Made by a program: the position numbers and the translations under genes. The notes below the pieces were generated by a model. That model saw only the letters and a program-made list of their open reading frames with translations. It was not told the DNA's origin and ran no database searches. A stretch of DNA of 64,000 bases from Eunapius fragilis (taxonomy: Eukaryota; Porifera; Demospongiae; Spongillida; Spongillidae): assembly GCA_963681505.1 (NCBI GenBank), contig OY811980.1, forward strand, positions 4,612,004 through 4,676,003, given 5' to 3'. Within the stretch, counting starts at the first letter, position 1, and each line of letters begins with the position of its first letter. Of this stretch, positions 3,775 through 62,335 are shown one piece after another.

Positions 3775-3967
3775 TGTGACAGAGCTGGTTGGTAGCACCC
3801 AGTCTGTCACTGCGCAATGGAAACCACTAGACCCGACTCTATACTCTACGAGACCGCCACGGCCAGTAGTTCACTTAAATTCTCGAAGTCTCTTATAATT
3901 ATACGATCAATACACTTATATACATATTCAGTTCTGTAATGCGCATGCCCATAGGTCTGGGCTCTCA
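3775..3967 (-). repeat. 3' LTR of fossil Ty3-type element G1
   Basis: Plus-strand ends are TGTGACAGAG...GGCTCTCACA, that is TG...CA on the element strand. About 150 bp match the partial LTR at 18607-18755 with only a handful of differences, so the element is fairly young. It directly follows the pol region on the minus strand. Confidence 0.85.
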
Positions 3968-6900
3968 CACTTCCTCCCCCTTCTCCTGCAGCAATGCCAT
4001 TGCTGAATTCCTAGAGAGGGCATCTGCGTTCCCGTTCTGAGCTCCTGGACGATGTTCCATCACAAACGAATAGGGCTGGAGAGCTAGACTCCATCGGCAC
4101 AGCCTTGCATTGTTCTCTTTGAGTCTTTCCATCCACTCCAGCGCTCTATGATCTGTCTGTACTACAAACTTTCTTCCAAGTAGATAAACTTTGAATGCCT
4201 CGAACGCTAGCTTGATCGCTAAACATTCTTTCTCAATGGTGGAGTAACGCTGCTCCCTAGGTAATAGCTTTCGGCTATAATACCCCACCGGATGGTTGTG
4301 TCCATCTCCTCCCACTTGAGTTAATACTGCCCCCACACCTCGATCTGATGCATCCGTTTGCACTATAAATCTTTTCTTGAAATCGGGGCTGTTCAACACG
4401 GGATCAGAACATAACATGTCCTTCAGGGCTTTAAAAGCATCTTCACATTCGTCGTTCCAGATCACTGAATTCGGCGCTGACTTCTTTGTCAGATCTGTGA
4501 GCGGGGCTGCTACAGACGCAAAATTAGGCATAAATCGTCTGTAGTAACCTGTTAGGCCCAGAAATGTTCTTACTGCCGTTTTGGTTTCTGGCCTTGGGAA
4601 TGTCTGAACCGCCTCCACTTTGTCCAACACCGGCTTGATCACCCCATTCCCTACAATATATGCCCCAAATACTCACAGCTCTTGTAGGCAAACTTGCTCT
4701 TCTTTAGCTTCACCGTGAGTCCAGCGCTGTGTAACCTGGTAAGAACTGTCTGCAAGTGAACAAGGTGCTCCTTCCACCCACAGCTAAAAATAACAAAATC
4801 ATCGATATAGGCTGCCGCAAACTGTTCACACCCTTGCAATAATTTGTCCATTAATCGTTGAAACGAGGCTGGAGCTCCACTTAGCCCAAATGGCATTACT
4901 CTAAATTGGAATGCACCAAAAGGAGTTGCGATTGCTGTTTTTTTCCTGTCCTTTTCGGCTACCGGAACCTGTCGTTAGGTCTAGTGTGGTAATCAAGCTT
5001 GCCTTTCCTAGCCCATCAATTAAGTCATCAATTCTAGGCATTAAGTAAGTATCCACCCTAGTGACTGCATTCAACTTCCGAAAGTCTACACACAGGGGCA
5101 ATTCCCCATTCCTCTTTATATCGACCACTATCGGAGAAGCCCAATCGCTACATGTTGGCTCTATTATGCCCCCCTTTTCCATATCAATCAACTCCTTTCT
5201 AACCTGTTCTCTATAGGCATGTGGCAACCTATAAGGAAGTGACCTAACCGGTTTAGCATTATCGGTTTTAATTTTATGCTCATACAGACTAGTTCTTCCT
5301 GGTTTGTCACTCATGACCCTAGCAAATTTTCCAAGCAATAATTCCGTCAACTCCGCCCTCTGTTTGCTATCCAGCTCCTCCCTCATCCTGACTATCTTTT
5401 CTGACTCACCTCCCCGCCATGAAGGAATTTCTAGTTCTTCCTCCTGATCCTCCTCAGAGAAATAGCTTCCTTGATCTCCAGCACCCTCACGTACGTGGTA
5501 ATCCTTCAGCATATTCACATGAGAGATTCTTTTCCTTTTTTTTGTATCCTGCATGTCAATCAGGTATGTAACCTTACCCATCCTCTGGATGACTTGATAA
5601 GGCCCCTGCCATTGAGCAAGTAGTTTGTTGGAAGTTGTTGGAAGTAGAACCAAGACTAAATCTCCCGTCTTAAACTCTCGAAGCCGCGCCCTTTTGTCGT
5701 ACCAGGTTTTCTGATGCAGCTGGGCCTTGGTTAAGTTCTCTTTCACTACTTCCGCCATCTGGCTGAGCTTTTCCCTCGTTGACAGAACGTAACTGATGAC
5801 ATTCTCATCGCTGACTGTACCTGATTCCCAAGTGTCTCTTAAAACGTCTAAAGGGCCTCGCACATCCCGTCCGTAGAGCAACTCGAAGGGGGAAAGCTCC
5901 GTTGACGCTTGTGGCACCTCCCTGTAGGCAAATAAGAGGTAAGGTATCATTTTATCCCAGTCCTTCCCTGTGTCGGTTACGGCCTTCCGCAGCATCGACT
6001 TTAACGTTTGATTAAATCGTTTAACTAATCCGTCAATCTCCGGATGATATGGGCTAGTGTGGATAGGTTGAACCTGTAGTAACCGGTACAGCTCCGCAAG
6101 CAACTGTGATGTGAAATTTGATCCCTGGTCGGATAGTATTTCACGTGGAACGCCCACCCGTGCGAAGACCTTGATCAATTCTTCAGCTACGCTTTCGGCA
6201 TCAATGCTTTTTAGAGGGACCGCCTCCGGATACCTAGTTGCATAATCACATATCACTAGCAGATATTTGTTACCCGACCGGCTTCTTAGTAGTGGTCCCA
6301 CTATATCCATAGCAATTCGACTGAAAGGTTCAGACACGATCGGTAGTGGTACCAAAGGAGCCTTCTGAACCCCTCTTTGGGTAGCTTTCTGGCAGACTCC
6401 ACACGTCCTGCAATATTCTTCCACATCTCTAAACACCGTTGGCCAAAAGAATCTTCTCAGCAACCTTTGCCCGGTTTTGTCCCGTCCTAAATGGCCTGCA
6501 ATAGGAATATCGTGTGACATTAACAATGCAACATGCCGACAAGCCTTAGGCAGAACAAGCTGTTCAACCTCGGACTCCTCCCCTCTTCCTCTTGGGGTCC
6601 ATCTTCTGTACAGCAATCCCTCCCTATAGAACCACTCTCCTTTTGTGCCATGTGTCTTCCTGGCTGCCTCCCTTGCCTCAGACAGAGAGACATCTTGTTC
6701 CTGCAATTCTTTCATTTTTGTAGCATCCACATTGCAGTATTCCAACCCCTCCCCTTGTGTCTTAGTTCCCAAATCCTTACAAATATGCCGTTTCTGCTCC
6801 TGTGATAAGGTTCTTGGAATATCCACTCCTTCAGGGTTGAAAGGTTTTGGGACCACTCCTGACAGAGCCTCCTTCTCCTTTAACAAGATCTCCTGCTGCA

Positions 6901-7211
6901 GTTCTTGTTTCTTCCTTGCCCTAGTCATTACCACCATGACATCCTCTTGCGAGAAAAACCCATAGCTCGCCCGTTTGCCAAGCAACCGAGGCAACTCCGA
7001 CACGTCTGTCCCCAGTAGAACTCCGACTGGCAAGGTGTCCACCACAGCTGCCTCTACATGTACAGGACTTCCCTCCACCTCCATGTCCACCACTGCTAAG
7101 GGATAGAGCACTGTATCCCCATGAGCACATTTTACAGACACCATCTTCCCCTCCAAAATCTTAGTATGAGGGACCAGCTGTCTCCTCACCATGGTACGGG
7201 AACACCCCGTG
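3968..7211 (-). mobile_element. Fossil Ty3-type LTR element G1, pol half (PR-IN-RT-RH order)
   Basis: Reading leftwards on the minus strand the parts are: a protease region (about 7.19-6.95 kb); an integrase with an HHCC zinc-binding module (about 6.53-6.38 kb), a DDE core (about 6.3-6.0 kb) and a C-terminal part ending near 5.5 kb; reverse transcriptase (about 5.3-4.65 kb, with a YIDD-type motif); and RNase H (about 4.5-4.0 kb). Integrase before RT is reversed from ordinary Ty3/gypsy elements but matches the order published for Gmr1-like elements. Sequence motifs are Ty3-type, not Ty1/copia-type. The element is broken, with about two breaks in pol besides the 10.3-kb insertion. It continues with gag at 17477-18606. 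Confidence 0.88.
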
Positions 7212-7440
7212 CACTGTTAAAAAAAAAGGCCCGAGGGGTGTTAGGTCTGAGGGGTGTTACAGCCCATGGGGTGCTATGATAACACACTAGGGTGTTCAGC
7301 TTACACCTATGGGTGTTGGCAGACTACGCGAGAGTGTTAGCACCGTACCCCACCAATAATGGAGTGTTAAGACATTTAAAAGGTGTGTTGTCATAACACT
7401 GATTTACCGCATTACACCCCAGTGAACGCGTTCCCAGCTT
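7212..7440. repeat. Left terminus and subterminal repeats of the CACTG element
   Basis: The terminal CACTG(T)TAAAA is followed by at least six GGGTGTT or complementary AACACC words spaced 10-30 bp apart, up to about 7380. In CACTA elements such arrays are transposase-binding sites; that role is inferred here. Confidence 0.7.
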
Positions 7441-8164
7441 TGTTTGTTTGACGGATTGAGGGCGTGGTTGGCAAGATGCTATGGCAGCTGTGACAGACTT
7501 CGTAGTTGGATTGAACTTTAAAGACGAACGTTATCTTTAAGGTATGTACGCACGCACAAGACTTACAGTACTAAACGCTGGCCTTGGCGGGCTTTCGTCG
7601 TTGTGGGTTTGTAGGTTAGTGCGTTTGTACACGTTAGCGTCGCTTTTACAACGTGCAATAACGGTATACAGCAAAGCTGTGTTTAAGAAGGCTTGCGTGC
7701 AGTGGTTCATGTATGCGCACCACAGTGTTAAAACTCCATCTGGATTCTAGTTAGACCACACCCTAATAGTAAAATTACATGGGAACATATATATATTGTT
7801 GGACACAAGTTTTTTCATATGTTATCACATGTAGCTCAAGGAGGAGCATAGTAATCATCTGGTACCAACACAATAAAATCATGTCTATCACCTGTTACAG
7901 TCAATACAGTTCATACAGGATAGTATATGTACGCTTTAACTTTGAACTGTTCCAGATATATGGTGCTTCATTACCACCAATCTGTCGCCATTTGGACATC
8001 TTCTAGCATGGAGTGGAACAATGTTTTGAGAGATATTACCCTGGTAGAGGTTGAATAACTCAATGTATAGCCATGGTAGTGCTTGTTGAATGCAAGCGTT
8101 GACATTACAGTCACAATTGCCATAGGTTTTGTGGTATCAATCATGTACAGTTCCTTAACTTGCC
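7441..8164 (+). other. Inside of CACTG element, possible first exon
   Basis: A start codon at 7481 opens a short frame (MAAVTDFVVGLNFKDERYL) that stops just before a good donor, AAG then GTATGT, at about 7541. It may be a 5' untranslated or mini exon of the gene at 9325-10344. Nothing else was recognised up to the LINE fragment. Confidence 0.25.
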
Positions 8165-8772
8165 CAAGCATAGGGTAGTCTTCATCCACGTTAGGCCACT
8201 TTTAGAATTCAACACTCCAGTCTGGAATCCTTGGCTGTTTAAAGATATTGAACATATAGAAGGAGTACAGCGTTACTTCACACGAGAAATTTATAAACGT
8301 GCAAGGCTTCCTCGCATGGATTATGCATCCAGGTTAGCAAATCTTAATTTGTCATCATTAGAATATCGTCGTGTCTATTTTGACCTTACAATGTGTTACA
8401 AAATTGTGAATAAGCTTTTGGATATTGATGCAGCTGAGATGTTTACAGTCATTTCAAACGTTCATTCCACTCGTGGGAATTCATACAGGCTCCAGTCGGT
8501 CACCATACCTCGTCATGATTTTCGGCTATACTTTTTTTCATCTCGGGTTGTTCCTATTTGGAATTCTTTACCACAACATGTTGTATCTGCAAAGAATATC
8601 ATCACCTTCATGTGTCGCCTCAAAACTGTAGATCTATCTCCCTTTTGTAAACTGTATCCATTTAAATAGGAAGTATATAAGTGCATTTACACATGCCATT
8701 ACTTGCCTCTTCAGTGCATTATCTGTACAATGCATTGAGAAATATTATTATTATTATTATTATTATTATTAG
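8165..8772 (+). mobile_element. 5'-truncated LINE, CR1/Jockey-like, copy 1
   Basis: The frame ending at 8669 encodes the extreme C-terminal domain of a non-LTR reverse transcriptase: it opens with VRPLLEFNTPVW, contains the LNLSSLEYRR and MCYKI words typical of this domain, and ends LSPFCKLYPFK. About 80 bp later a (TTA)n tail (8745-8772) marks the 3' end. The catalytic RT part is absent because the copy is 5' truncated. The last residues match the ending of the minus-strand copy at 35632-36890, so both belong to one family, though their tails differ. Confidence 0.82.
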
Positions 8773-9324
8773 AATAACAATACACATAGTTTGATACTTC
8801 TGACCAGCAAAGGTGACCCATTTAGCCCTGCAATTAAAAATATATGTGTGTTTATATAACGATGACATCGTTTTTTTTTTTTTCACTCATGAAAAACACG
8901 TCTCATTAACTCAATTGGGGTTACCTAGTTTTGTTGTGTAAGCAGGGGGAGGACAAGAGAGCATGTACTATAAGGATGATGGAGATGCTTGTGAGGATGA
9001 TACAGGAAGTGTAAGGGGGAGGAGGCTGGGGGGAAGGAGGGTGAGGAGGATGATAGTTTTGATTAGGGAGGTACAGTGTAGGAGAATTGGATTGGGGAGG
9101 TGTAAGAAAATGGGGAGGGGGGGTATGGTAATCAAAGGTGGGAGAGGATCCTCCCTCCACAATCTGATTAGGAAGATGCGGACCGGGTGATAGTAGTAAT
9201 GAATTTACAAATATTTTATGTTCATGCACATACATGTATTTGTCATTCAAAACGAGTTCTGAACATGCATTAAATATTAATGATGGACAGTCTTTAGCTT
9301 CATTTAGTGTTTTGTACCCTTCAG

Positions 9325-9857
9325 CTTTGGAGGGAACTGGTGGCTATAGTTGGCACTGACAATGAGGAAGTGGCTAGTGAGAGATGGAAAATGATGATTC
9401 CTAAATTGTACAGACTGGCAAAGAAGGAAGCTGAAAGTCGGGAGAATATTTCTGCTATACTTAAAGCTCAGCTCAGTGAGATACAGAATTGCACAAATGA
9501 GGAAGGTAATTGTAAAGAGGCTATTTTTACATGTTTATACAGATAATCTTTGCTGTGAATAATGACTGTGAAAAGGGGTAGGTGTAGTTATGTACAGATA
9601 CGAAAAGATATTATGGCTTTGACACATTTCATTTTATTAAAGTTAGATAGCTCGGGTATATTGGCATATAATAAACACCATCTTTAAAATTATATAGGAT
9701 TTTGATAAAATGATTTAGAATTTTTCTAAATGCCAGCTAAACTTTTCAGTATAAGTAACAATGCATGCACATAAACACTTGTGATTTACAAGTAGTGACT
9801 GTTTCTGTTTGTTTACACATGTTCAAATTTGTGTGTGCGTGCGCGCATGTGTGTGTT

Positions 9858-9905
<48 letters not shown>

Positions 9906-10344
9906 GACAGCAAATACACTGAGCGAACTGCAATCTTTGGAGCTACTCAATGCCTTACTTATGCCCAAGAAATATGCGAGCAAAAGTATCAACGTTGTGC
10001 TCTGAATGTCTGTGAGTTTTCTAAATACTAAGGGGCTTAGAGGTGGAGGAGGAGGGGAGTGAGCAAACATCTGTAGGTGTTGAAAAACATTTTCCTGACA
10101 GATTTGTACCCAATTGGAACAGGCTGTACAAACTGTGGGATAAAACTGGCCCTACATACTTATAGTGAATCGTGACTCTACTGCCCCACAAATCTTTGTT
10201 GTTACCGAACAAGAGATCCTGGTAGAGAAGCCAACTTCCTGGGAGGCTATCAAGTCTCTGTATGGAGCATACTTTGCCTTTAATATAGAGTATCCAAAAT
10301 CCAGTCTAGCATTCCTTAAATTTTTGGACAATTCTATATTCTAG
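9325..10344 (+). CDS. Multi-exon gene carried by the CACTG element, C-terminal part
   Basis: Three exons fit GT-AG rules and phase: 9325-9505 (acceptor CCCTTCAG; donor GAAG then GTAATT; starts LWRELVAIVGTDNEEVASER), 9911-9985 (phase 1; LSELQSLELLNALLMPKK) and 10041-10344 (phase 1, after a 55-bp intron). The last exon ends with FVVTEQEILVEKPTSWEAI, YFAFNIEYPKSSLAFLKFL and stop TAG. This tail resembles one found in many uncharacterised fish and invertebrate proteins, some annotated as SAMD3-like; that likeness is from memory. One frame shift is needed near 10160 inside the last exon, so this copy may be inactive unless an exon boundary was missed. The first intron holds a (GT)n tract. The start was not located. 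No known transposase domain is visible. Confidence 0.5.
9845..9902. repeat. (GT)n microsatellite
   Basis: About 27 uninterrupted GT units plus a degenerate left shoulder, within the intron between 9506 and 9910. Confidence 0.9.
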
Positions 10345-11246
10345 ACATCCAGGATAGTCAGAAAATACCTACCCTAGCTGTTTGTGTCAAGTCAACACTG
10401 GATCGACTATTGTAACTGATCATTTTTGCTGTATGCCTGGATTGACTATAGTAACTAATCATTTTTTTCTGTACTCTGACTAAGTGCTTATTCCTTTTTG
10501 TCATTTTGATTCATGTTACTATTGTAACTGTTGAACAAATACATGTGTATCAAACTTTGAGGTTATACCACACTGCCAAAAGCTTTTTGAGTCGTGGTAA
10601 TGTGAAAGTATGTACACAGATTGATTGCATATGTTGGTCGTTAGTGCGTAGTTGCTAGCCACTTCTTTATCTGCTCTTCCTTGTAACTCTTATAAAAGCG
10701 CATCTGGGTTGCCCTTAGTTTTCTGTTGCTCCATCTATTGTTTATTTTTATGGAAGAGAATATAATTATTATCGATGTGTAGCACTACATAGCGTGTTGA
10801 CAAGTAGGGAGAGGCAAATAAGTAACTATAGTGAGAGGCAAGTAGTCTGAGGTATACATGTAGGATGAACTGAGGGTAAGGAAGACATGTTTGTAAAGGA
10901 AGAGACAACTGAGAAGACTCCTGATGCAGACAAGGTTTTAGCGAGTGAGGAGGAAATGGCTATGGGGACCATTACCAAAGGTTGCCATAGAGGGGATCAT
11001 GTGACTTGGACCAGACTGGTTGCCATGAAGATCATGTGATGGGTCAGTCAATAGCAGGGTAGCATTTTGATTCCACATGTGCCATATTGTATGAATATCT
11101 GAAATGGTGCCACATTTGGCATATCATGCATGCTTAAGCTTGGCACCAGCATGATGTCATAATTGGATCAACTTTTTATCAGTATTAATATGTATCCATG
11201 TTTTGTGTTCATGTTGATAAAAACATTGAACTTCTAGTGAGTAAAT
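10345..11246. other. Unassigned, within the CACTG element
   Basis: No firm feature. A 50-codon acidic plus-strand frame (10887-11039, beginning MFVKEETTEKTPDADK) has coding-like composition but no recognised domain or splice partner. Confidence 0.3.
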
Positions 11247-11494
11247 GGGGTCGAGGCAGCAAAAAGGGACCTAGCGCATATTATAAAAATTTCCAGGAAG
11301 GAGCATCAAAGTCCACATGTGTAATAAAAATGTACGCGTAATTAAAAATTCGGGACCCTGTAACCCCATGATGGACAGGCTAATTTCCAGTGTGTATGAA
11401 AGAAGTTGTAGAGGACATAGGTGTCTCTCTGAATATGAAATATTTGAAAACTTGAAAAAATACGCGCTAGGTCCCTTTTCGCTGCCTCGACCCC
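11247..11494. mobile_element. MITE, GGTCGAGGCAGC family, copy 1 (248 bp)
   Basis: Terminal inverted repeats of about 30-35 bp: GGGGTCGAGGCAGC on the left, then AAAAAGGGACCTAGCGC, and the complement on the right ending CTGCCTCGACCCC. There is no coding capacity. Related copies lie at 50553-50760 (right end lost) and 53021-53250. The full transposon providing the transposase is not in the window, and no sure target duplication was seen. Confidence 0.85.
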
Positions 11495-11828
11495 AGGGTA
11501 TTTTTCATTGCGCATGCGTGACCCTAAATAGCACGTTCTCCGTGACCTTTAATATAAAGTGTTCGTGAAAGGTAATAGGCATGGTGATTTTTTGCTTGGT
11601 TTAAGCCCAGTTGTTTTCTTCAAACATTTAGCGATGGGTCGTTCAATTAACAACAGTTGGGTGCCTTGAAGAGAGTGCATCGAGTTGTTCTTGGTAGGGA
11701 TTCTAGTACAGCAGTTCGGAATGCCTGTACAAATCCACTTCTCGGCTATATACGCTAAGGAAAATTCTACTACCTTGCTACCCAGCTACTACAGCGCACG
11801 CTACCTCACTATACGCGTGAGGAATCGA

Positions 11829-12035
11829 GGTACATGTAAGTTCCTTTTCACGCGTTCAAATACGCCCTATTTTATTTTACAAAGTCCGCAAGACTAACAG
11901 GACATGCCTTACCAAGCTATCGGGGTAAGCCATACACGTCAGTTCCCTTTCACGCGTTCAAATACGCCCTATTTTATTTTACAAAGTTCGCAAGACTAAA
12001 AGGACATGCCCTACCAAGCTATCGAGGTAAGCCAG
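11829..12035. repeat. Two-copy tandem repeat, unit about 103 bp
   Basis: The block containing CACGCGTTCAAATACGCCC, then TTTTATTTTACAAAG and GACATGCC, appears twice with few differences. Each copy ends ATCGRGGTAAGCC. No coding function was recognised. Confidence 0.75.
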
Positions 12036-12349
12036 AACAATGTATTTCACTGTCAGTGCGGTCGACGGCGTTGTTACAGTATACTCCTTCGCGAAGGCCA
12101 AGATTTAAGGTCAGACATGTCTTGTACTGTAACCTGACCTTTATGTGTTCTCTTATTTTGTTTAGTGTCTGAACCAGAGAAATAACCTGCTCGAGCGTCA
12201 TGGCGTGCAAAGACTTCTAAGTTTCGTATATATATGTGTTCTTCATGTTGTATTTATTTATCATCATTTTATTAAAATCAATTGGACCTGTTGTATAGTT
12301 TATTAATATCAATTTATGTTGGGATCATCAATTTACGGTAAATATACGA

Positions 12350-12510
12350 GATATTGTTACCTCTGTCAACACCCAATAGAGTGTACTGGCTACACTTCAG
12401 GGGTGTTAGCTGTAACACTCCTAAGCGGTTACCACTACACCCCAGGGGGTGTCATTTTAAAATACCCATACGAACACCCCATATCGAGAAATTGGCGGTC
12501 AAAAGGATTA
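12350..12510. repeat. Internal subterminal-type repeat block of the CACTG element
   Basis: GGGGTGTT and its complement recur (CAACACCC, GGGGTGTTAG, AACACTCC, GGGGGTGTC, GAACACCCC), followed by CATATCGAGAAATTGGCGGTC. The same run of repeats plus motif occurs at 17380-17476 (inverted), 19476-19646 and 27139-27512 (inverted). It may be the end of a second related element inserted in the first, or an internal duplication. Confidence 0.55.
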
Positions 12511-13597
12511 CGCGGTATTCGGTCATTGCGTAATTCTATGTCCATAGAATATTATGGACGCATTCAGAAAACTGCATCGAACTGCAGAAAAAAAAATTAT
12601 ATTGACTAGGTGCTCTCGGATTTGCAATGTGGGGACTATTTGGCATATTTTGAGTACTTTCACGCACCGTAGGTACCTATATCCGCACTTCCACATTAAT
12701 TATGCAAGGTTTCCAATGTCCATTCATTTTATCTCATTTACTTATTCAGTCATCAATAGTTTCCCAACCAAATTATATTTTCCTTAGGTGCAACCGGATT
12801 ATATGAGAGTAATCAATGCACTTATTTATCATTATTTTTTCAGAGCTTAGTGCTTTCAAATCGCGCTTCCCTTGAATGGTTAGTGAGACACACCCCACAT
12901 ACAAAACGCATAATATCACGTGCTACCCTTTCGTCAGTTAGCCGTGCCCAGACCGAACTGTTTTTAAAATATGTGTTGACGTCTATAACTACGACCCCAC
13001 CCACCACTATAATGACACAACAACTTAACGTGCATGCGATTTATTAACCGTTATTTACGGTACTAGTGGCGCTTCGCTTTTGGTTCGGTACTTCCTCATC
13101 CACGGACGATTTCGAACGGTACAAAGACGACGATATCTGAGATCAATCCCACGAGGTTTAAGACCTGGAAGGCTACCTGTGGGACCCTCCATTGAATACC
13201 GGTATATACGTACATATATATGGAATACCTCACAGCTAACAGCTACAGTACAGTATGGAGTGGACCCTATGGCGACATATGGCGAGACAGCGCTACGGAA
13301 TACCCGACAGCTAGCAAACAAGTACTGTATGTGTATGTGTGACTGTATGCATGTGTTGTGTGAGTGGCTATGAATCCTCTCTCCCCCTCTCTGTGCACGT
13401 ATGCCATGTATATGTACATGTATGCTAAGAATCAGTTCTTGTATGTTGTTGTGTTACCTTGTGCATACGTACATGAATGTACATGTAATTGGTTTGTTTT
13501 GATGACATTCTGCATTGTTTTCCACAGTACACAGCTCAATCTCCAGCTATCAATGCTCACCAAAGGCAAGTTTAGCTTTGCAGGGTTGGCCTATTTA
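12511..13597. other. Unassigned, weak coding hints
   Basis: A frame following an acceptor-like TTTTTTCAG at 12841 runs to 13047 (starting LVLSNRASLEWLVRHTPH), but it has no recognisable domain. A second at 13080-13373 is arginine- and tyrosine-rich. Neither is supported. No RNA gene was seen. Confidence 0.25.
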
Positions 13598-13872
13598 CCC
13601 ACTCCCTCCCTCCCTCCCTCCCTCCCTCCCTCCCTCCCTCCCTCCTCCCTCCCTCCCTCCCTCCCTCCCTCCCTCCCTCCCTCCCTCCCTCCCTCCCTCC
13701 CTCCCTCCCTCCCTCCCTCCCTCCCTCCCTCCCTCCCTCCCTCCCTCCCTCCCTCCCTCCCTCCCTCCCTCCCTCCCTCCCTCCCTCCCTCCCTCCCTCC
13801 CTCCCTCCCTCCCTCCCTCCCTCCCCCCCCTCCCTCCCTCCCTCCCTCCCTCCCTCCCTCCCTCCCTCCCTC
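13598..13872. repeat. (CTCC)n tetranucleotide tract, about 275 bp
   Basis: An almost pure CCCT/CTCC run with three small interruptions (near 13643, 13825 and 13872). Long frames across it on both strands are only the translated repeat (PPSL or GGRE), so they are not annotated. The strand asymmetry (all pyrimidine on plus) favours triplex-type DNA; that is an inference. Confidence 0.95.
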
Positions 13873-13923
13873 TCCTTGCCTCTTCCCTCCTTCCATGATC
13901 TCTCCTTCCACTTTCCTTCAACA

Positions 13924-14397
13924 GAGGAGGCCCAGAACAGTGACGAAGATAAGGACAGACTCAGCAAGGTGACCCACACATACCAGTCTGAGAGGAAGGC
14001 GAGCCAGCAGTCCTGGGGGCCACTCTCACCTTGGAGATGGAGACAGAACAGAACAGGGACCAGCGGGGTGTCGTGGAGAAGGCACAGAATTTGAACCAGG
14101 TCTGGGCACTGGGCACCACTTGCAGTAACCCTTTATAGGCCAGTCAGATACAGTGATATAAGACACCAATATTAGCATTATTAATTTTTATTTGTATACG
14201 TACATATGTCTAGTTGCCATGGTGATTTTACCATAGTACATGTCCTCGTACTATGCAGCAAAACTCATAGTCTGTTGTATAATGATTTAAAAATATTGTT
14301 TGTTTATATATAGTATGGAAGAGGACAATATACAGAGGACAGGACTACACCAAGTACATTGAGAGGAGGGAGACCTCACAGAGGAGTGCAGCCAGCA
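13924..14397 (+). CDS. Possible exons of an unidentified gene
   Basis: Three coding-looking blocks: NSDEDKDRLSKVTHTYQSER (13938-13997), LEMETEQNRDQRGVVEKA in another frame (about 14034-14090, helical and charged, followed by CAG then GTCTGG) and DYTKYIERRETSQRSAAS (14343-14397, ending CAG then GTGGGT). Acceptor-like sites (CTTCAACAG, TATATATAG) precede the first and last. The frames do not join neatly, so this is either a gene with unseen introns or a decayed copy. No family was recognised. Confidence 0.25.
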
Positions 14398-14475
14398 GGT
14401 GGGTGTGATCAAGGGAGGTGTGGCAGCAGATGTGATGAAGCCAAATATTGTGGCATACAAATGTACGATTACATG

Positions 14476-15000
14476 TGGTGTGTTGTATGTACTGGACTGG
14501 TGTGTTGCATGTACTGGACTGGTGTGTTGTATGTACTGGACTGGTGTGTTGTATGTACTGGACTGGTGTGTTGTATGTACTGGACTGGTGTGTTGTATGT
14601 GTACTGGACTGGTGTGTTGCATGTACTGGACTGGTGTGTTGTATGTACTGGACTGGTGTGTTGTATGTACTGGACTGGTGTGTTGCATGTACTGGACTGG
14701 TTTGTTGTATGTACTGGACTGGTGTGTTGCATGTATTGGACTGGTGTGTTGTATGTACTGGACTGGTGTGTTGTATGTACTAGATTGGTGTGTTGTATGT
14801 ACTGGATTGGTGTGTTGTATGTACTGGACTGGTGTGTTGCATGTACTGGACTGGTGTGTTGTATGTACTGGACTGGTGTGTTGTATGTACTGGACTGGTG
14901 TGTTGCATGTACTGGGCTGGTGTGTTTCATGTACTGGACTGATGTGATATATGTACTGGACTGGTGTTTTTACTGGTGTATGCACTGGACGAGTATGTTG
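14476..15000 (+). repeat. 22-bp minisatellite, forward array (about 24 copies)
   Basis: Head-to-tail copies of TGTGTTGTATGTACTGGACT plus GG, with scattered substitutions that mark individual units. All three frames are open because the unit has no stop; the apparent proteins are artefacts. The same unit occurs inverted at 15683-15865. Confidence 0.95.
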
Positions 15001-15370
15001 TAGGTGTGATGTGCCTACTGGATTGCAATGTGGCACTGTGGTCACTGTGATCCAGAAGCCTCTGATTATGGGTGGGTGTGTGTCACTAGTTCCTGAGTCC
15101 TACATGCAGTACAGAGGCATAAGCTATTAGCTGGCCTATCTGCTTGCCACCACCTCACATATTTCGTCATAGCAAACTGTGTGTGTGCTTGTGTTTTTTT
15201 GTTATGTACATGGTCCATTTCTAGGGGTCTGTAGCTTTTTACTGGAGGGAAGCCTTGATAGTGGCAGTGAAACCCTATCTCAATAGATTTGTAAGGACTG
15301 GGCCACTGGAAAGTTTATATGCTGAGCTATTCACATACATGGCTTCATATAAACCCATGGCTTCTCCAAG

Positions 15371-15374
<4 letters not shown>
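15001..15374. other. Spacer between minisatellite arrays
   Basis: No gene or repeat was recognised. Confidence 0.4.

Positions 15375-15433
<59 letters not shown>
15375..15433. repeat. (GT)n microsatellite
   Basis: About 29 uninterrupted GT/TG units. Confidence 0.92.
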
Positions 15434-15435
<2 letters not shown>

Positions 15436-15599
15436 GTGTGGGGCACTCATCTAAATTTACAAATTCTGAGGATGATACACTGGTGTCTACTGTATCTCAC
15501 CACCACCACCCTTCCTCTTTACGAAAGGTGCAGGGGCAATGCCCCACCCCCTATCCTCCCCCTCATACAACATACCAATTGAGTACATACAACACAGCA

Positions 15600-15865
15600 C
15601 ATACAGTGTGTTATGTACTGGACTGGTGTGTTGAACTGGACTGGTATGTGTACTGGGCTGGTGTATTGGACTGGTATGGCCAGTCCAGTACATACAACAC
15701 ACCAGTCCAGTGCATACAACACACCAGTCCAGTACATACAACACACCAGTCCAGTACATACAACACACCAGTCCAGTACATACAACACACCAGTCCAGTA
15801 CATACAACACACCAGTCCAGTACATACAACACACCATTCCAGTACATACAACACACCAGTCCAAC
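15600..15865 (-). repeat. 22-bp minisatellite, switching to inverted orientation
   Basis: Three degenerate forward units (15612-15676) meet the reverse array at the small palindrome ACTGGTATGGCCAGT (about 15669-15683). From there CCAGTCCAGTACATACAACA repeats about eight times. Together with 14476-15000 it forms a large inverted repeat. Confidence 0.92.
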
Positions 15866-16265
15866 ATAGGATGGATGGGTCTCTTCTAAAATAAAGAATG
15901 GTGTGGCAATAAGTCCTGAAAATAGTGTGGCAGGAAGTCCTGAAAATAGGAAGGGCATTTTAGCTTGGAAGACATGTGGGTTTGAAATTGATGCTGGTCC
16001 TTTTATCTTATACATGTATACCACAAGCGTGGTTTTGTAGGCCACAGCATGAAGCAGTATGTAAACTACCTTAGTCCAGGTAACCACAAATTTGACAGAG
16101 AGCTGATAATTCTAAAACTGCTTCTGGGTTTGTTTTTGAATGTCAATGTCTCTGTCTTTGACAATGTGTATGACATGATTTTTGAAATAGATGCTGCCCT
16201 CATGAAGGCACTTGCCCAGGAGACTACTGCTGATTGCAGATTTCCATCTTAATGTGCCCCTCCTC

Positions 16266-16303
<38 letters not shown>

Positions 16304-16656
16304 CAGAGCCCTGCCTACCAACCCATATTGGAGTAAGGTCTGGAGAAGAAAATGGAGGTCACTACCATGTGCAGGAATCAAACTTTTATGTATGTGTGTT
16401 AAATTTGTTTGGTAGTGTGAACATTTCGGTTCTCTCCACATAAACTGATTTCTGTCACAATGGGCAAATGCCACAAATGGCTCAGCACAGCAGGGGACTT
16501 TCATGATGATTCACACATGTGTGTGTAAAGCATGGCATGGGACATTGGCTACAAAATTGAAATGCAATGTAGATGTGACAAATCAATTTGGGATCTGTTT
16601 ATACAACATGACACTACTGATGTGATGTGGTCAAGAAACCTTATGAGCAGGCAACA
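15866..16656. other. Unassigned; holds a (GT)n tract
   Basis: A (GT)n microsatellite lies at 16268-16301. Small open frames at 16049-16252 and 16112-16504 have no domain. Nothing else was recognised. Confidence 0.4.
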
Positions 16657-16668
16657 TCTACACACACA

Positions 16669-16711
<43 letters not shown>
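16657..16711. repeat. (CA)n microsatellite
   Basis: About 25 CA units with one interruption. Confidence 0.92.
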
Positions 16712-16712
<1 letters not shown>

Positions 16713-16727
16713 AGCAAACAGTTCTTG

Positions 16728-16872
16728 GACAAGATCTTGCCCATGGTGGCAAGATTATGCTGGCAAAGATCGTGGCCAAGTCTTACCCAAGGTATGGCAA
16801 GATCTAGGCCTCCTGCCAAGATCTTGCTCTTGGCAAGAATCTTGCCCAAAAACTTTTTGCTGGGACCAGACC
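16728..16872. repeat. CAAGATCTTG-rich dispersed repeat, copy 1
   Basis: Short self-complementary words (CAAGATCTTGCCC, GGCAAGATTATGCTGGCAA, GCCAAGATCTTGC) recur five or six times and the block ends AAAACTTTTTGCTGGG. The same words, in the same style, occur at 39005-39125 and 39415-39550, where the block lies inside an LTR fossil. Confidence 0.65.
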
Positions 16873-17379
16873 CCTGAATAGACATCACTGCATGCATGAA
16901 TTGCTACCACACAAAAAGGGTTATGTTATAAAAGTACAGGTCCTGCTATGAGGTTCTCAACGTGACATCATAGTATCTTAGAGCGTACAATAAAAAAATA
17001 ATAAAACGGTACATATCTTGAATGAGAACTACGGGGTTCCGAAGGCTGTAGGGGTTAGCGCTTAAGTTTAACAGACTGCCCTGGAAAATGGTCGCGGCCG
17101 ACGTCCGAGTTTGTGCTAATTGATGCGCATCCACCTCTTGTCGGATGGGTGGGGGCTGCTGTGACGTTACAGTATAGGAGTTTATTAACGAAGCGCAATT
17201 AAAATGGCAGTTATTGAACAGTGCCATTACAAGCAAGTCTCGTTTCCAGGCCCAGGAACGAGACTGCGACGGTAATTAATTTTTTGTCTTGATTTTTGTA
17301 TAACATTGCTTTATTGCAACGCAATGAAAACTACAATTCAAATTCAGACTAATTTTTAGTATTTTCCGTGGTCATTTAG
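16873..17379. other. Unassigned, right part of the CACTG element
   Basis: No gene was recognised; it lies just inside the right terminus of the CACTG element. Confidence 0.4.
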
Positions 17380-17476
17380 AATTCGATTTGAAATAAAATG
17401 CAAGATGACCGCCGATGTATGGGCCATTTCTCCATATGCCGAAGTGTGTTGCGGTAACACCTTTTTTTTAACAGTG
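17380..17476. repeat. Right terminus of the CACTG element with shared subterminal motif
   Basis: The minus strand reads CACTGTTAAAAAAAAGGTG, then AACACAC, then ATGGAGAAATGGCCCATACA and GGCGGTCATCTTGC. The latter motif is repeated at 19606-19646 in the opposite orientation. Confidence 0.7.
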
Positions 17477-18606
17477 TGTGTAACAAGATTTGGTTAACCG
17501 CACGACCTTCCACCAAACCCTTACAATACAATCCCAGGTTCCCATTGACCTTTGACTCACGCCCTAACAATGCCCTATTGTTCGGACACCGTCTTGCAGG
17601 GTGACCAGGCTTCTTACAATTGAAGCACACAATGCCCTTCTGTCTGCCACCTTCATCTCTTGTTTTCTTATAGCACACTTCTTCCTCATGACCGACCTTC
17701 CCACAATAATGGCATTTTCTTTCTGGTTGAGAGTTCCCATGTACAGCTCTCTCCGAGTCCACCCCTTGGCGTCTGGCTTGCTCATATTCATCCATGAGCT
17801 CCCCTGCCTTCAAGCACGTCTCTGGTTTGCGCTCCGTTACCCAAAGCCTCTTCTCCTCTGGTAACGTATTGAAAAATTGTTCTATCCCTATTGATTCACG
17901 TACCTCCTCCACCGAATTGCACTCCTTCAGCCATTTCCCCAACAGGTCCATGAGCCTCACTGCGAGCTCTCTATTGGTCTCTCCGCTTCCTCTTACAGCG
18001 CTCCGAAAGCGTCGTCTGTACGCCTCCTCTGTAATATCGTAGCGCTGCAAAATGTCCAACTTAATTGCGTCATAGCTACCCAAGTCGTCCACCGGTAGAG
18101 CAGCAAATGCCAATTGAGCCCTCCCTGTTAATTGCGGAGCCAAGTACTGCGGCCAGCAGTCCTTCTCAACCTGGTGAGCTGCCATAATGCGCTCAAAGGT
18201 TTCGAGATACGCTTCTATATCATCCCTTTCTGTTAGCGGCACCAATTTCACACTCAACTCCCGCTTGTGACTTACGCCGTGAATCCGCCACCACCTTCAT
18301 AAGGGATTCCAAGTGTCCTCGCAACTCCTCCATCTGTTGTCCCGTCTCAAGTTCTCGTCTCTTCCTTTCTGCCTCCATCCTGGTTCTTTCCGTTGCGAAC
18401 TCTGCCTCCCTTCTCAATCTTTCCCCCGCAACTTCTTCCTCTCTCCTCCTACGGTCTTCGACAAGTAATTTTAACATACCTTGCATTTCTTCCATTCTAG
18501 GTTGCTTGTAACTTTTTCCCGAACGCGTTGTCATCCACAAATTTATAGCACGGGCGTCGGACAAAACCCGTCGCGACTTAAAATATCCCACCGCTGCCAC
18601 CATATA
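17477..18606 (-). mobile_element. Fossil Ty3-type LTR element G1, gag half
   Basis: On the minus strand from the LTR: a leader beginning CATATATGGTGGCAGCGG, a charged coiled region (about 18.55-18.25 kb), a gag core (about 18.25-17.75 kb) and two CCHC zinc knuckles (about 17.70-17.58 kb; CHYCGKVGHEEEVC and CFNCKKPGHPARRC). It is continuous in sense and family with pol at 3968-7211 and is separated from it only by the 10.3-kb transposon. It looks broken, with about one break on this side. Confidence 0.85.
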
Positions 18607-18755
18607 TGTGACAGAGCTGGTTGGTAGCACCCAGTCTGTCATTGCGCAATGGAAACCACTAGACCCGACTCTATACTCTACGAGACCGCCACGGCCAGTA
18701 GTTCACTTAAATTCTCGAAGCCTCTCTTAATTATACGATCAATACACTTAAATAC
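18607..18755 (-). repeat. 5' LTR of G1, partial
   Basis: It begins TGTGACAGAGCTGG like the LTR at 3775 and matches it for about 150 bp with few differences. The outer part is replaced by the foldback element at 18756. Confidence 0.85.
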
Positions 18756-19064
18756 ACAAGTAAATAAAAACATTCTCACTGAGAAAGTTGGTGGGATATA
18801 GGTTTTGCAGGCAAATAGTATACTAGTATACTGGTGCAAAAAGCAAGGAAACAAGTTTAATCAGAAGGGAAAATGTAATAGTCCTATATTTAGCACACTT
18901 CGACTAAGGCATATGCTGTTTCTGTGCTAAATATAGGACTATTACATTTTCCCTTCTGATTAAACTTGTTTCCTTGCTTTTTGCACCCGTATACTAGTAT
19001 ACTATTTGCCTGCAAAACCTATATCCCACCAACTTTCTCATTGAGAATGTTTTTATTTACTTGT
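18756..19064. mobile_element. Foldback element, ACAAG family, copy 2
   Basis: Two arms of about 142 bp (18756-18897 and 18923-19064) are complementary with few mismatches around a 25-bp loop. Ends are ACAAGTAAATAAAAACATTC and its complement. It carries AAAAAGCAAGGAAACAAG and TTTAGCACA at the loop edge, as in copy 1 (1007-1308). It abuts the truncated LTR of G1, so it is as young as or younger than G1. Confidence 0.85.
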
Positions 19065-19475
19065 TTCCTTCATTTTTTTAACACCCAAATAGGTACTTTT
19101 GCTTAATCACAACTCAGTTGTCCAGCTGTTAATGAAAGCGCCGTATCTAATTTCCAACGTACGTACGTACGTCCGCGTAACTGATTTTTCACGGGACACG
19201 CTAGTTTGTATTATAATTATTTCCGGTTAAAATGTCGAGAGGCGGGTCGTAGTATATGCCCGTACCAAGCGTGCTGTAGATACCATCACTCACAAAACAC
19301 AATCAATGAATGGCATTAGATATGACGAGGTCTTTGACTCCATGAACAGGGATGAAGATTTCTGCGTTGTAAATATCGACTTCAACAATGCCAGTAGTGA
19401 TGATAACATGGATGGGGCTGGGCAGCTGGAAGTGATGGGGACAGAGGGATAGAAGTGGAAGAGGACGAGAATGAA
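19065..19475 (+). CDS. Short coding-looking fragment, unassigned
   Basis: Within this stretch 19231-19452 is open and reads ERRVVVYARTKRAVDTIT, then a start at 19306 followed by RYDEVFDSMNRDEDFCVVNI and an acidic tail before a stop. Composition is protein-like. It lies directly upstream of a transposon-type subterminal array and may be the end of a transposon gene. No family was recognised. Confidence 0.3.
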
Positions 19476-35300: not shown

Positions 35301-38300
35301 CTGAAAGGATGCAAGACAGAGTATGGAAAGAGTGATTTAAATAGCTGTGAGTTGCAAAATATTCGACGTATACTACAACAATCAAGTACTTTTCTTATGT
35401 CTTGATTTACCTTGGGGTGTTGATATGAAACCTTCTTTTTGCTTTACATTTATAACCAATGAAGACTATGATCAAAGTACAGATTATTGTGAAAGCACAC
35501 ATTGCAGCAATTATTCCAATTATCGAGGTTGTGGTAGTCAAATTGATTGCATCACCGGGCAGAATTTCTGTGAATCACAAGATAGTTATTAAAATTTGCT
35601 TTTGATATACATATTTTATAATAAGATCATATTTTGATTTGATTTGATTTGATTGATTGCATACATTTAAACACACATACATATGCAAAAAGGCAAGTAG
35701 TGGCACGATGTGTATGTGCACTTACAAACGCCTAAACATGGAAGGGATATAACATACAAAAGGGTGAAAGGTTAAGAGATCTAAGTCGGGGATGAAAAAC
35801 TGTAATGTTCAATGAAGTGACAACATCTTAGGGTAAGTGGTTCCATATAGGTATCACACGTTCAGTGAAAAAATGCACTCAGAATGCATGATGGGTCAAA
35901 TGATTGGATCGCAGGATACAAGGATGACCTCAGATGGAATACGGCCTAGCCGGTTTGGTGAAAAAACTCTCAAAGGGTAAATCAACCAGGTTATAATAGA
36001 TCTTGTAGCACATGACAAGGTCGTAGAAGACTCTCCTGTACTCTAAGGACTGTAAACCCAGGTTCACAAGACGATCATTATTACCAATACGTGGTATACC
36101 AGCATGTTTGATTATGGCACGAGTGAAAAATCTCTGATCATGTTCAATGCATTGAATATCTTTATGGAACCAACGATTCCAAACTTGGATATTACTTTCC
36201 AGAAGGGGACGAACATATACCTTATAAAGACGCACAAGGAGAGACACATCGTTAGAATGAAAGCATTTTAAGAGAAGACAGCTCCTATTGAAAGCCATGG
36301 CAGCAATATTTGAGCAGTGCGTACTTGGCGTAAGATATGAATTCAAACACACCCCAAGATCTCTTATAGATGATACGAATTGCAAAGGAATACCAGAAAG
36401 TGAGGAAGGTTTAGTAGGCTCATAACCATGAGAACCAAAGGAAATGACAGAGCACTTGGAATAAGCAACAGTCAGTTGCCATGTCTTGGACCATGAACAA
36501 AATTGATTTAAGGATTGTATAAGTGGTGTATTTTAATTTTCAGTATAACCAAGGTACAGTTTTGTGTCATCGGCAGCTGGAGATTGGGCATGGTTAGGAA
36601 GGTCATTTACATATATCAGAAACAAGATAGAGCCAAGGACAGAACCCTGAGGTACACCACTGGTGATGGATTTAGGAGATGATGCATCAAGTCCTACATA
36701 TACGCATTGTGTGCGGTCGTTTAAAAAGGCTCTTATCCACTGAAGTAAGTTTGATTTAAAGCCATAAGCCTCAACCTTTAGCAATAATTTCGAATGGGAG
36801 ACAATGTCAAAGGCTTTAGCAATATCAGTATACACAACATCCACCTTCATGCCATTGTCAACATTCAATGTCCAATTGTTCAGAGTTATCAGTAACTGAG
36901 TACAAGCAGAATGTTGAGCAAGGAAACCAAACTATTTGGATGCCATGCTAGGAGTATTGAAATATCTCACCAGAATAAAAGTGCACATTCTTCATGTCAT
37001 TATTATTTACACTTATATGAACACAACTGAAAGATAATGCACAAATACGGACAGTGTCTAACAAAAACCCTGGCACAAACCCTAAGATCCCACCGAGAAT
37101 TCACAATGCTAAGACTAACTTCAGCCCTTGTCCTAACCTTGATTGGGAGAGGAAGGCTCTAGCATTACAGCGAACTAATGTGAATATAGAACTCTGGTAG
37201 ATGTTTGTGATGGCCTTTAACTTGCTGCACTAGAGCAGCAGGGCCAGGAGGAAACGCATCCTTACCTTAACAGCCAAAGGTCTGTAGCACTAAGAGGATG
37301 CAGATCCATCCTAACTCTTGCACTTCTGATCTTTGGCCTTGTGCTTGTGAGCTTAGGCCTTACCAGCTGTTGACCTACCCTGTAACTACTGCTTGTTCAA
37401 TGTATTTGAGTTATGCAGAGAGATCAGTTGAGTACCAGGATGTCTGCTGGCAGACTATGTGAACTATCAGCTCCAGACCCATGATCTACTTCAATTTGTC
37501 CACCAAGTCGAGCTCTATGAATAAAATGGTTTGAAACATATGTCAGGGCATTGTGGCACAGAACAACATCCCCACCCCCGGTGGTCAGGACAATCAGGGC
37601 AGTAAGGGCAAAGTCCCGGTGACGATGTGTCTGTCCCAAACAAGGCACCATTTAAAAGTGCCTGGAACTCTTCAACTCCAAGCTAAGACCAAGTCCCTTA
37701 GAAGGTATTACAGCTACACACGATGAAGCATGTGCGAAGAGACCGATAACAGAGGTATGGTTGGCTGGAATTGAGATGAGATGCAACTGGTCGAATTGAT
37801 GGTCATCAATTCTGCTAAATAAGTTTTTTTTGGCTGAGACCAGAGTAAAACAAAGGCTCCACTGAGACTGACCTTGCAGGAGGACCAAGCTGTTGTATTT
37901 GGTAAAAGCTTGCAGAATGAACTCATCAATAGGACCTGCACAATCAGTTTGATAATTAATGCAAATAAGCAACTGAACGATGTAAAAGCAACCTGCAGAG
38001 GCCTAAAGGCTCAACTGAACATACAACCAGTGAGAGTCCGAAGCACCAATTGCTCAGGGGTTGGAAGGGGGGGGGGGGGGGGGGGGGGGGGGGACGACTT
38101 GCTGAGTGCAGCATGACTAACTGCAGCTTAAGGACTTGCAGGAGTACAAAGGTACCCCAAGTTCAACAAATGGTTGGCTCACTCTCTGTGAGAAGCAATA
38201 GATTGAACAAGTTCATCATGAGAAAAAACCTCACACTTGGTAGTGGGACCAACTTGGTGACTGTGGAGAGTTGCAGCCTTAAAATCTGCAAGAATGCCAT

Positions 38301-62196: not shown

Positions 62197-62335
62197 TGTA
62201 GTGTCCTAGTCACTCGTTTAAGCCGCTACAAGAGAGGTGAACATCTCGCTGCGTGACTGACTCAAAAAGTGATCATCCTTTTACGCGCATGCGCTAACAT
62301 ATTACAATTGACACACACACACACAATGTATTACA
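62197..62335 (-). repeat. 5' LTR of fossil G3
   Basis: 139 bp, TGTAGTGTCC...TGTATTACA. TGGGA follows at 62336-62340, repeating the bases before the other LTR. Confidence 0.9.

What the first reader, a model, noticed from the sequence alone, without database searches (positions are those of the whole stretch)
3775..18755. Ty3-type retroelement with integrase before reverse transcriptase (Gmr1-like order)
One long minus-strand frame passes from protease through HHCC and DDE integrase into RT motifs, with RNase H further on. Ordinary Ty3/gypsy elements have integrase last. This swapped order has been described for Gmr1-like elements, mainly from deuterostomes. If the host is a sponge or another early animal, the clade is older or wider than first described, or moved between lineages. 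The order is seen directly; the clade and host are inference.
Basis: partly seen in the sequence, partly recalled or inferred. Interest (0 to 1): 0.72.

Follow-up and report, generated by a model that had tools for sequence, protein, structure and literature searches.

The report
Sponge Ty3 retrotransposon with swapped integrase
A broken jumping gene in a freshwater sponge belongs to a large, recently active family whose integrase sits before its reverse transcriptase, an arrangement known from fish, frogs, a worm and crustaceans but not found reported from a sponge in the papers searched.

Summary
Window 3775-18756 (minus strand) is one LTR retroelement in the order gag(SCAN)-protease-integrase-RT-RNase H. 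The copy is dead: a 10.27-kb insert (7212-17476) splits its protease, gag and RT frames are broken, an integrase active-site residue is replaced and the 5' LTR is truncated.

The order is a family trait. Of 139 related integrase hits (lower bound), 74 have RNase H downstream and 0 upstream; 104 have SCAN upstream and 0 downstream. RT and integrase trees each group the sampled swapped-order copies apart from conventional Ty3 elements of the same genome. Many copies have one Gag-Pol frame; of 17 read, 15 have a tRNA-Leu primer site and 8 have identical LTRs.

The assembly matches Eunapius fragilis, a freshwater sponge. A swapped-order SCAN element on a bacterial-MAG contig, probably bivalve DNA, joins the group (100/99 on joined genes; single genes are less decisive). 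This is a Gmr1-like element, a known kind, extended to Porifera. The clade may predate the sponge-bilaterian split; horizontal transfer is not excluded. Gmr1 itself could not be placed in the trees. No sponge report turned up in the searches made.

The parts
18607..18756 (-). 5' LTR, 3'-most 150 bp only; a palindromic repeat (18741-19079) abuts it
   Evidence: 97% direct repeat of 3775-3924; the LTR start motif occurs once in the window, at the 3' LTR; alignment to L009
18585..18602 (-). primer binding site, complementary to the 3' end of tRNA-Leu(AAG) plus CCA
   Evidence: sequence; like motif in 15 of 17 swapped-order loci; the 16-base tRNA end is part of a tRNA-Leu(aag) gene in 2 of 6 loci scanned
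18220..18642 (-). gag, N-terminal open piece (out of frame with the next piece in this copy)
   Evidence: ORF lists; no Pfam match
17376..18296 (-). gag capsid open piece; SCAN domain at 17766-18029, zinc knuckle near 17580-17630
   Evidence: PF02023 3.1e-17 and PF00098 1.9e-4; the genome-wide SCAN hit is at the same place
7212..17476 (.). 10,265-bp insertion inside the protease coding region; 15-bp terminal inverted repeats; its ends recur elsewhere in the genome
   Evidence: boundary alignment with copy L009 and TIR; repeat copies of the ends
6960..7192 (-). protease, C-terminal remnant
   Evidence: weak PF13975 0.0044, below cut-off; homologous pieces between SCAN and INT in 17 of 17 swapped-order loci
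6380..6550 (-). integrase zinc-binding domain (HHCC)
   Evidence: PF17921 1.2e-16
6041..6331 (-). integrase catalytic core (rve, DDE type); one active-site acidic residue is replaced in this copy
   Evidence: PF00665 8.1e-14; motif comparison
5504..5605 (-). integrase C-terminal SH3-like part
   Evidence: PF22938 4.2e-10
4988..5365 (-). reverse transcriptase, N-terminal part
   Evidence: no Pfam match on its own; 52-96% alike to the piece downstream of INT in 16 of 17 swapped-order loci
4654..4974 (-). reverse transcriptase, C-terminal part (different frame)
   Evidence: PF00078 6.7e-26
4070..4384 (-). RNase H
   Evidence: PF17917 1.1e-38; same place
3970..3987 (-). polypurine tract abutting the 3' LTR
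   Evidence: sequence; purine-rich stretch before the 3' LTR in other copies
3775..3969 (-). 3' LTR, 195 bp
   Evidence: aligned to the 5' LTR of L009 (1558-1752), 95.9%

Best explanation
It is a dead copy of a Gmr1-like Ty3/gypsy LTR retrotransposon in the freshwater sponge Eunapius fragilis. In intact relatives one Gag-Pol reading frame is present. Gag (a SCAN-type capsid plus zinc knuckle) builds the particle, and the protease cuts out an integrase that lies before RT-RNase H. tRNA-Leu(AAG) primes reverse transcription at a site next to the 5' LTR, and the integrase inserts the copy with a 5-bp target duplication. The domain order was changed once, in an ancestor of the swapped-order elements sampled here, before sponge and non-sponge branches split. 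Shown: order, domains, LTRs, primer site, target duplications, common frame, grouping in trees. Inferred: particle formation, processing, primer use, and the age of the swap.
For: Domains in order. Of 139 INT hits at 54% identity or more, SCAN upstream 104 / downstream 0 and RNase H downstream 74 / upstream 0 within 6 kb. 16 of 17 fetched swapped-order loci show SCAN-PR-INT-RT-RH; the 17th (L014) lacks RT-RH. Separate trees: sampled swapped-order rows on one side of a branch, INT 99/94, RT 99/98. With the outside element L041: INT 99/96, RT 95/87, joined columns 100/99. The SCAN gag profile matches tetrapod SCAN structures, best 1.2e-11. LTR pairs in 14 of 17 loci, 8 identical; 5-bp duplications readable as printed in 7. 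Primer site in 15 of 17. Host match.
Against: No Gmr1 reference sequence could be put in the trees. The outside member L041 is a single contig; its animal source is inferred, its SCAN match is below Pfam's cut-off, and the mollusc survey that I looked into names Gmr1 only in its background. Taken one gene at a time, the AU test does not reject L041 grouping with conventional elements (p 0.186 INT, 0.070 RT), and RT support falls to 84/87 without long rows. The conventional sister is not settled: the RT trees leave it open or differ from INT. An annelid transcriptome survey did not find Gmr1, so the known distribution is patchy.
Confidence: 0.9

Rival explanations
1. The same domain order arose independently in sponges, so the elements look like Gmr1 without being of its clade.
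For: Gmr1 itself is not in the trees; only one non-sponge swapped element (L041) was available; single-gene AU tests do not reject its placement with conventional elements.
Against: They share two unusual traits, order and SCAN gag, and L041 joins them at 100/99 on joined columns, where both alternatives tested are rejected, p 0.002 and 0.0009. Within this genome SCAN lies upstream of none of the 150 best rve hits.
Confidence: 0.07
2. Local rearrangement or mis-assembly of this one copy.
For: The copy is broken and carries a 10-kb insert.
Against: 74 of 139 relatives show RNase H downstream and none upstream, and the 139 lie on 20 contigs; 39 of them lie in frames of 1400 aa or more (counted).
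Confidence: 0.01
3. The integrase was captured from a distant element (chimera) and not moved within one lineage.
For: The RT trees do not settle the same sister as INT: an open fork, a different weak sister.
Against: In INT the nearest conventional rows are L026-L028, L033, L035 and L038; the same six are among the nearest in RT, in an open fork with L032, and are the sister on joined columns (89/85).
Confidence: 0.06
4. A Ty1/copia element.
For: PR-INT-RT-RH is the copia order.
Against: RT is RVT_1 and RNase H is RT_RNaseH; no copia-type RT family was reported for any piece scanned.
Confidence: 0.01
5. On age only: sponges received the lineage by horizontal transfer, so its presence there does not date the clade.
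For: 8 of 14 LTR pairs are identical, so activity is recent; horizontal transfer of LTR elements between aquatic animals is known (recalled).
Against: Sponge INTs differ among themselves down to 61% identity and form their own group apart from L041 (48-57% identical), 99/98 in INT. This points to long residence, though an old transfer would look the same.
Confidence: 0.3

Closest known systems
Gmr1 clade of Ty3/gypsy (type: Gmr1 of Atlantic cod)
   Same: PR-INT-RT-RH order; SCAN-type gag (reported in over half of frog Gmr elements only, PMC4131045, passages); one Gag-Pol frame of about 1,500-1,600 aa (fish Gmr1-4: 1506-1634 aa, PMC11117352, table passage; here 1400-1672 aa in 39 of 139 hits, counted)
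   Different: Host is a sponge; shorter element (4.8-5.3 kb in 13 of 14 copies with LTR pairs, against 6.1-6.5 kb in the fish table) and mostly shorter LTRs (195-378 bp as aligned, against 337-518 bp)
L041, swapped-order element on a contig of a Candidatus Thiodubiliella MAG
   Same: SCAN-INT-RT-RH in one 1476-aa frame; same group in INT, RT and joined trees
   Different: SCAN gag only 28-31% alike and below Pfam's cut-off; INT 48-57% identical
Conventional Ty3/gypsy elements L026-L028 of the same genome
   Same: INT 44-46% and RT pieces 45-50% identical to the window's; L026 also has one long frame of 1643 aa
   Different: RT-RH before INT; no SCAN match in the gag pieces scanned
Ty1/copia
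   Same: domain order only
   Different: RT and RNase H families are those of Ty3/gypsy

Membership tests
Gmr1-like Ty3/gypsy | integrase upstream of RT in Pol | tested here: met
   window; 74 of 139 relatives with RNase H downstream, 0 upstream
Gmr1-like Ty3/gypsy | Ty3/gypsy-type RT, RNase H and integrase | tested here: met
   PF00078, PF17917, PF17921, PF00665
Gmr1-like Ty3/gypsy | SCAN-type capsid in gag | tested here: met
   PF02023 3.1e-17; profile match to tetrapod SCAN structures
Gmr1-like Ty3/gypsy | swapped-order elements form one group in RT and in INT trees | tested here: met
   sampled copies: 99/94 INT, 99/98 RT; with L041 95/87 RT, 99/96 INT, 84/87 RT without long rows, 100/99 joined
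Gmr1-like Ty3/gypsy | clusters with the type element Gmr1 | not testable with these tools
   no Gmr1 or other named animal member was available to the trees
Gmr1-like Ty3/gypsy | single Gag-Pol frame, LTRs, primer site, target duplication | tested here: met
   in relatives; the window copy is broken
Ty1/copia | copia-type RT (RVT_2) | tested here: not met
   RVT_1 and RT_RNaseH found, no RVT_2 reported

The most novel reading that the evidence does not exclude
The swapped-order, SCAN-gag lineage already existed in the last common ancestor of sponges and bilaterians and has been kept and amplified in sponges since. That would make the source lineage of the vertebrate SCAN transcription-factor domain as old as animals, and the Pol rearrangement a single event of that age.
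Probability: 0.5. Interest if true: 0.6.

Novelty: new member of a known kind. Interest (0 to 1): 0.4.

Why it matters
Gmr1-like elements are described in print from fish, tunicate and frog, and later from crustaceans and an annelid. A large, recently active and internally diverse set in a sponge places the clade outside Bilateria. It makes the age of the Pol rearrangement, and of the SCAN capsid later co-opted in tetrapod transcription factors, testable by surveying sponge, cnidarian and ctenophore genomes.

Tried and rejected
Local rearrangement or mis-assembly: rejected by the census. Ty1/copia: rejected by domain families. Distant capture of the integrase: not supported, though the RT trees leave the sister open. 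A viral-contig scan with the integrase alignment found 31 pattern matches and no relative. The genome-contig scan gave 9 loci: 1 swapped (L041), 6 conventional (L042-L047), and 2 (L048, L049) in which only INT was matched. The PR, SH3 and RH probes were read in a wrong frame; only its SCAN, INT and RT probes were used, and PR and RH were redone. The INTc probe carried stops and supports no claim here. Pfam scans of the protease pieces of other copies were weak: below cut-off in L009 and L012, nothing in L010.

Rows left out before trees: RT of L009, L024 (out of phase), L014 (no RT), L037 (no RTn match) and L030 (stops); L037 and wconv62 from INT; L032, L044 (INT) and L032, L031, L044 and the window piece (RT). 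In one search, 33 of 40 INT rows were used: 6 lacked a usable RT, and L032 was dropped as a long row. L001-L008, L048 and L049 were in no tree. One search reports 152 matches; the 150 listed were used.

Paper searches for sponge or cnidarian Gmr1 found none; the library holds open-licence PMC papers only, and Repbase and GyDB could not be searched. Emerson and Thomas 2011 (PMC3209298) is not held; its content is second-hand here. The isolate code of L041's MAG was not found in the one paper searched for it.
Full report
WHAT IS THERE. On the minus strand of 3775-18756 lies one LTR retroelement. Reading along the element: 150 bp of a 5' LTR (18756-18607), a primer binding site (18602-18585), gag pieces with a SCAN domain (3.1e-17) and zinc knuckle, a protease remnant (weak Pfam match), an integrase with HHCC (1.2e-16), catalytic core (8.1e-14) and C-terminal part, then RT (RVT_1 6.7e-26), RNase H (1.1e-38), a polypurine tract and a 195-bp 3' LTR.

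THE COPY IS DEAD AND INTERRUPTED. Alignment with the closest copy (L009, integrase 96% identical) shows a 10,265-bp insert at 7212-17476, inside the protease coding region, with 15-bp terminal inverted repeats. Both its ends recur in the genome: 40 matches were scored for each end, the window itself included. On the pol side, 39 of 40 begin exactly at the boundary and one at base 4. On the gag side the other 39 begin at base 19 or later, all but one between bases 36 and 43, so a second repeat may be nested there. Gag and RT are each split over two frames, one acidic residue of the integrase active site is replaced, and 45 bp of the 5' LTR are missing next to a palindromic repeat at 18741-19079.

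THE ORDER IS A FAMILY TRAIT. The integrase piece was searched against the whole assembly; 152 matches are reported and the 150 listed were used. 139 are at least 54% identical and 11 are 44-46%. Within 6 kb of the 139, a SCAN hit lies upstream in 104 and downstream in 0; an RNase H from the 150 scored hits lies downstream in 74 and upstream in 0. Counted's table, 39 of the 139 lie in frames of 1400 aa or more. In intact copies SCAN, INT and RNase H report the same frame, for example 1466 aa at C8:1978254-1981940. SCAN hits lie on each of the 23 contigs C1-C23. All these are lower bounds, because each search scores only its best candidates. SCAN lies upstream of none of the 150 best rve hits; 9 of those have a listed RNase H upstream, the conventional order.

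FETCHED COPIES. Twenty loci were fetched around integrase hits. L009-L025 are of the swapped kind: 16 of 17 show SCAN-PR-INT-RT-RH, and L014 lacks RT-RH. L026-L028, from the 44-46% hits, have RT and RNase H before integrase and no SCAN match. Twelve further conventional loci were fetched in smaller pieces. In the 17 swapped loci LTR pairs were found in 14, 8 of them identical, with 5-bp target duplications readable as printed in 7 (L009, L010, L012, L014, L017, L019, L020). A primer site complementary to the 3' end of tRNA-Leu(AAG) was matched in 15 of 17. The 16-base tRNA end occurs 39 times in the genome; several lie just upstream of SCAN hits, as primer sites would. Of 6 loci scanned, 2 hold a tRNA-Leu(aag) gene ending there and 4 hold no tRNA. 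So the family moved recently and shows the usual LTR-element signals.

TREES. Separate trees of INT (35 rows) and RT (28 rows) each put the swapped-order rows on one side of a branch, 99/94 and 99/98 (ultrafast bootstrap/SH-aLRT). In INT the nearest conventional rows are L026-L028, L033, L035 and L038; in RT the same six and L032 form an open fork with the swapped group. A scan of bacterial and archaeal genomes gave 9 contigs, probably eukaryotic contamination. One of them, L041, comes from a Candidatus Thiodubiliella MAG and has SCAN-INT-RT-RH in one 1476-aa frame. Papers describe Thiodubiliella as a symbiont of bivalves (passages read), so the animal source is probably a bivalve; this is inference, and the mollusc survey looked into names Gmr1 only in its background. 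L041 joins the swapped group outside the sponge copies: INT 99/96, RT 95/87; 97/93 and 84/87 without long rows; 100/99 on joined columns. Taken one gene at a time, its grouping with conventional MAG-borne elements is not rejected (p 0.186 INT, 0.070 RT); on joined columns it is (p 0.002), as is its grouping with L026-L028, L033, L035 and L038 (p 0.0009). On joined columns those six are the sister of the swapped group (89/85); in the RT tree a different set is, weakly (80/91).

HOST. The assembly has 218,937,333 bases in 24 contigs. The Eunapius fragilis genome note gives 218.91 Mb in 23 scaffolds plus a 28.5-kb mitochondrial genome (abstract and passages read). C1, C2, C3, C4, C7, C18, C19, C20, C21 and C23 agree with the printed chromosome lengths and C8 with the N50; C5 is 11.683 Mb against 11.69 printed. 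Marker searches did not complete.

WHAT IS KNOWN. Integrase before RT is described as the mark of Gmr1 elements (PMC6238403, PMC8220671, PMC2582038; passages). Crustacean members were called the first in protostomes in 2013 (PMC3587641, passages), an annelid family followed, and one review of clades lists Gmr1 among those present in several phyla while its own annelid transcriptomes yielded none (PMC8556966, passages). SCAN occurs in over half of frog Gmr elements only (PMC4131045, passages), and the vertebrate SCAN domain is held to come from a Gmr1-like gag (PMC3424704, passage). The sponge gag profile (with L041 in it) matches tetrapod SCAN structures, best 1.2e-11; the window piece alone, best 5e-7. 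Fish Gmr1-4 also have one Gag-Pol frame, of 1506-1634 aa (PMC11117352, table passage). No paper on Gmr1 in a sponge or cnidarian turned up (listings), but only open-licence papers are held.

VERDICT. A new member of a known kind, in a host phylum not found in print here. The interesting part is age. The sponge copies differ down to 61% identity among themselves and sit apart from L041, which fits a clade older than the sponge-bilaterian split, but an old horizontal transfer would look the same.

Noticed in passing
7212-17476: A 10.27-kb insert with 15-bp terminal inverted repeats (CACTG ends) sits inside the retroelement's protease. Neither of the two ORFs scanned matched Pfam; it holds satellites and a piece (8103-8669) that by eye resembles non-LTR RT (recalled).
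   Followed up: partly
18741-19079: A palindromic repeat with 157-bp arms (94% complementary, 25 nt apart) abuts the truncated 5' LTR.
   Followed up: no
59250-62071 and 62331-63998: Two more Ty3/gypsy-like elements with integrase after RNase H (conventional order) lie in the same window, one broken and one cut by the window end.
   Followed up: partly
35930-36931: Two adjacent minus-strand open pieces resemble a broken non-LTR reverse transcriptase by eye (recalled motif).
   Followed up: no
44658-46580: A repetitive stretch gives open frames of repeated short peptides on both strands; probably a minisatellite.
   Followed up: no
L014 889-4908: A 4.0-kb derivative keeps LTRs, SCAN, PR and INT but shows no RT-RNase H match, with LTRs 99.7% alike: possibly a non-autonomous copy moved by relatives.
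   Followed up: partly
L026 and L028: The nearest conventional-order relatives in this genome have a zinc-knuckle gag with no SCAN match in the pieces scanned, so SCAN and the swapped order go together in the copies seen.
   Followed up: partly
L041-L047: LTR elements of eukaryotic type sit in bacterial MAG contigs (Thiodubiliella, Trichormus, Limnohabitans), probably contamination from host or other eukaryotes.
   Followed up: partly
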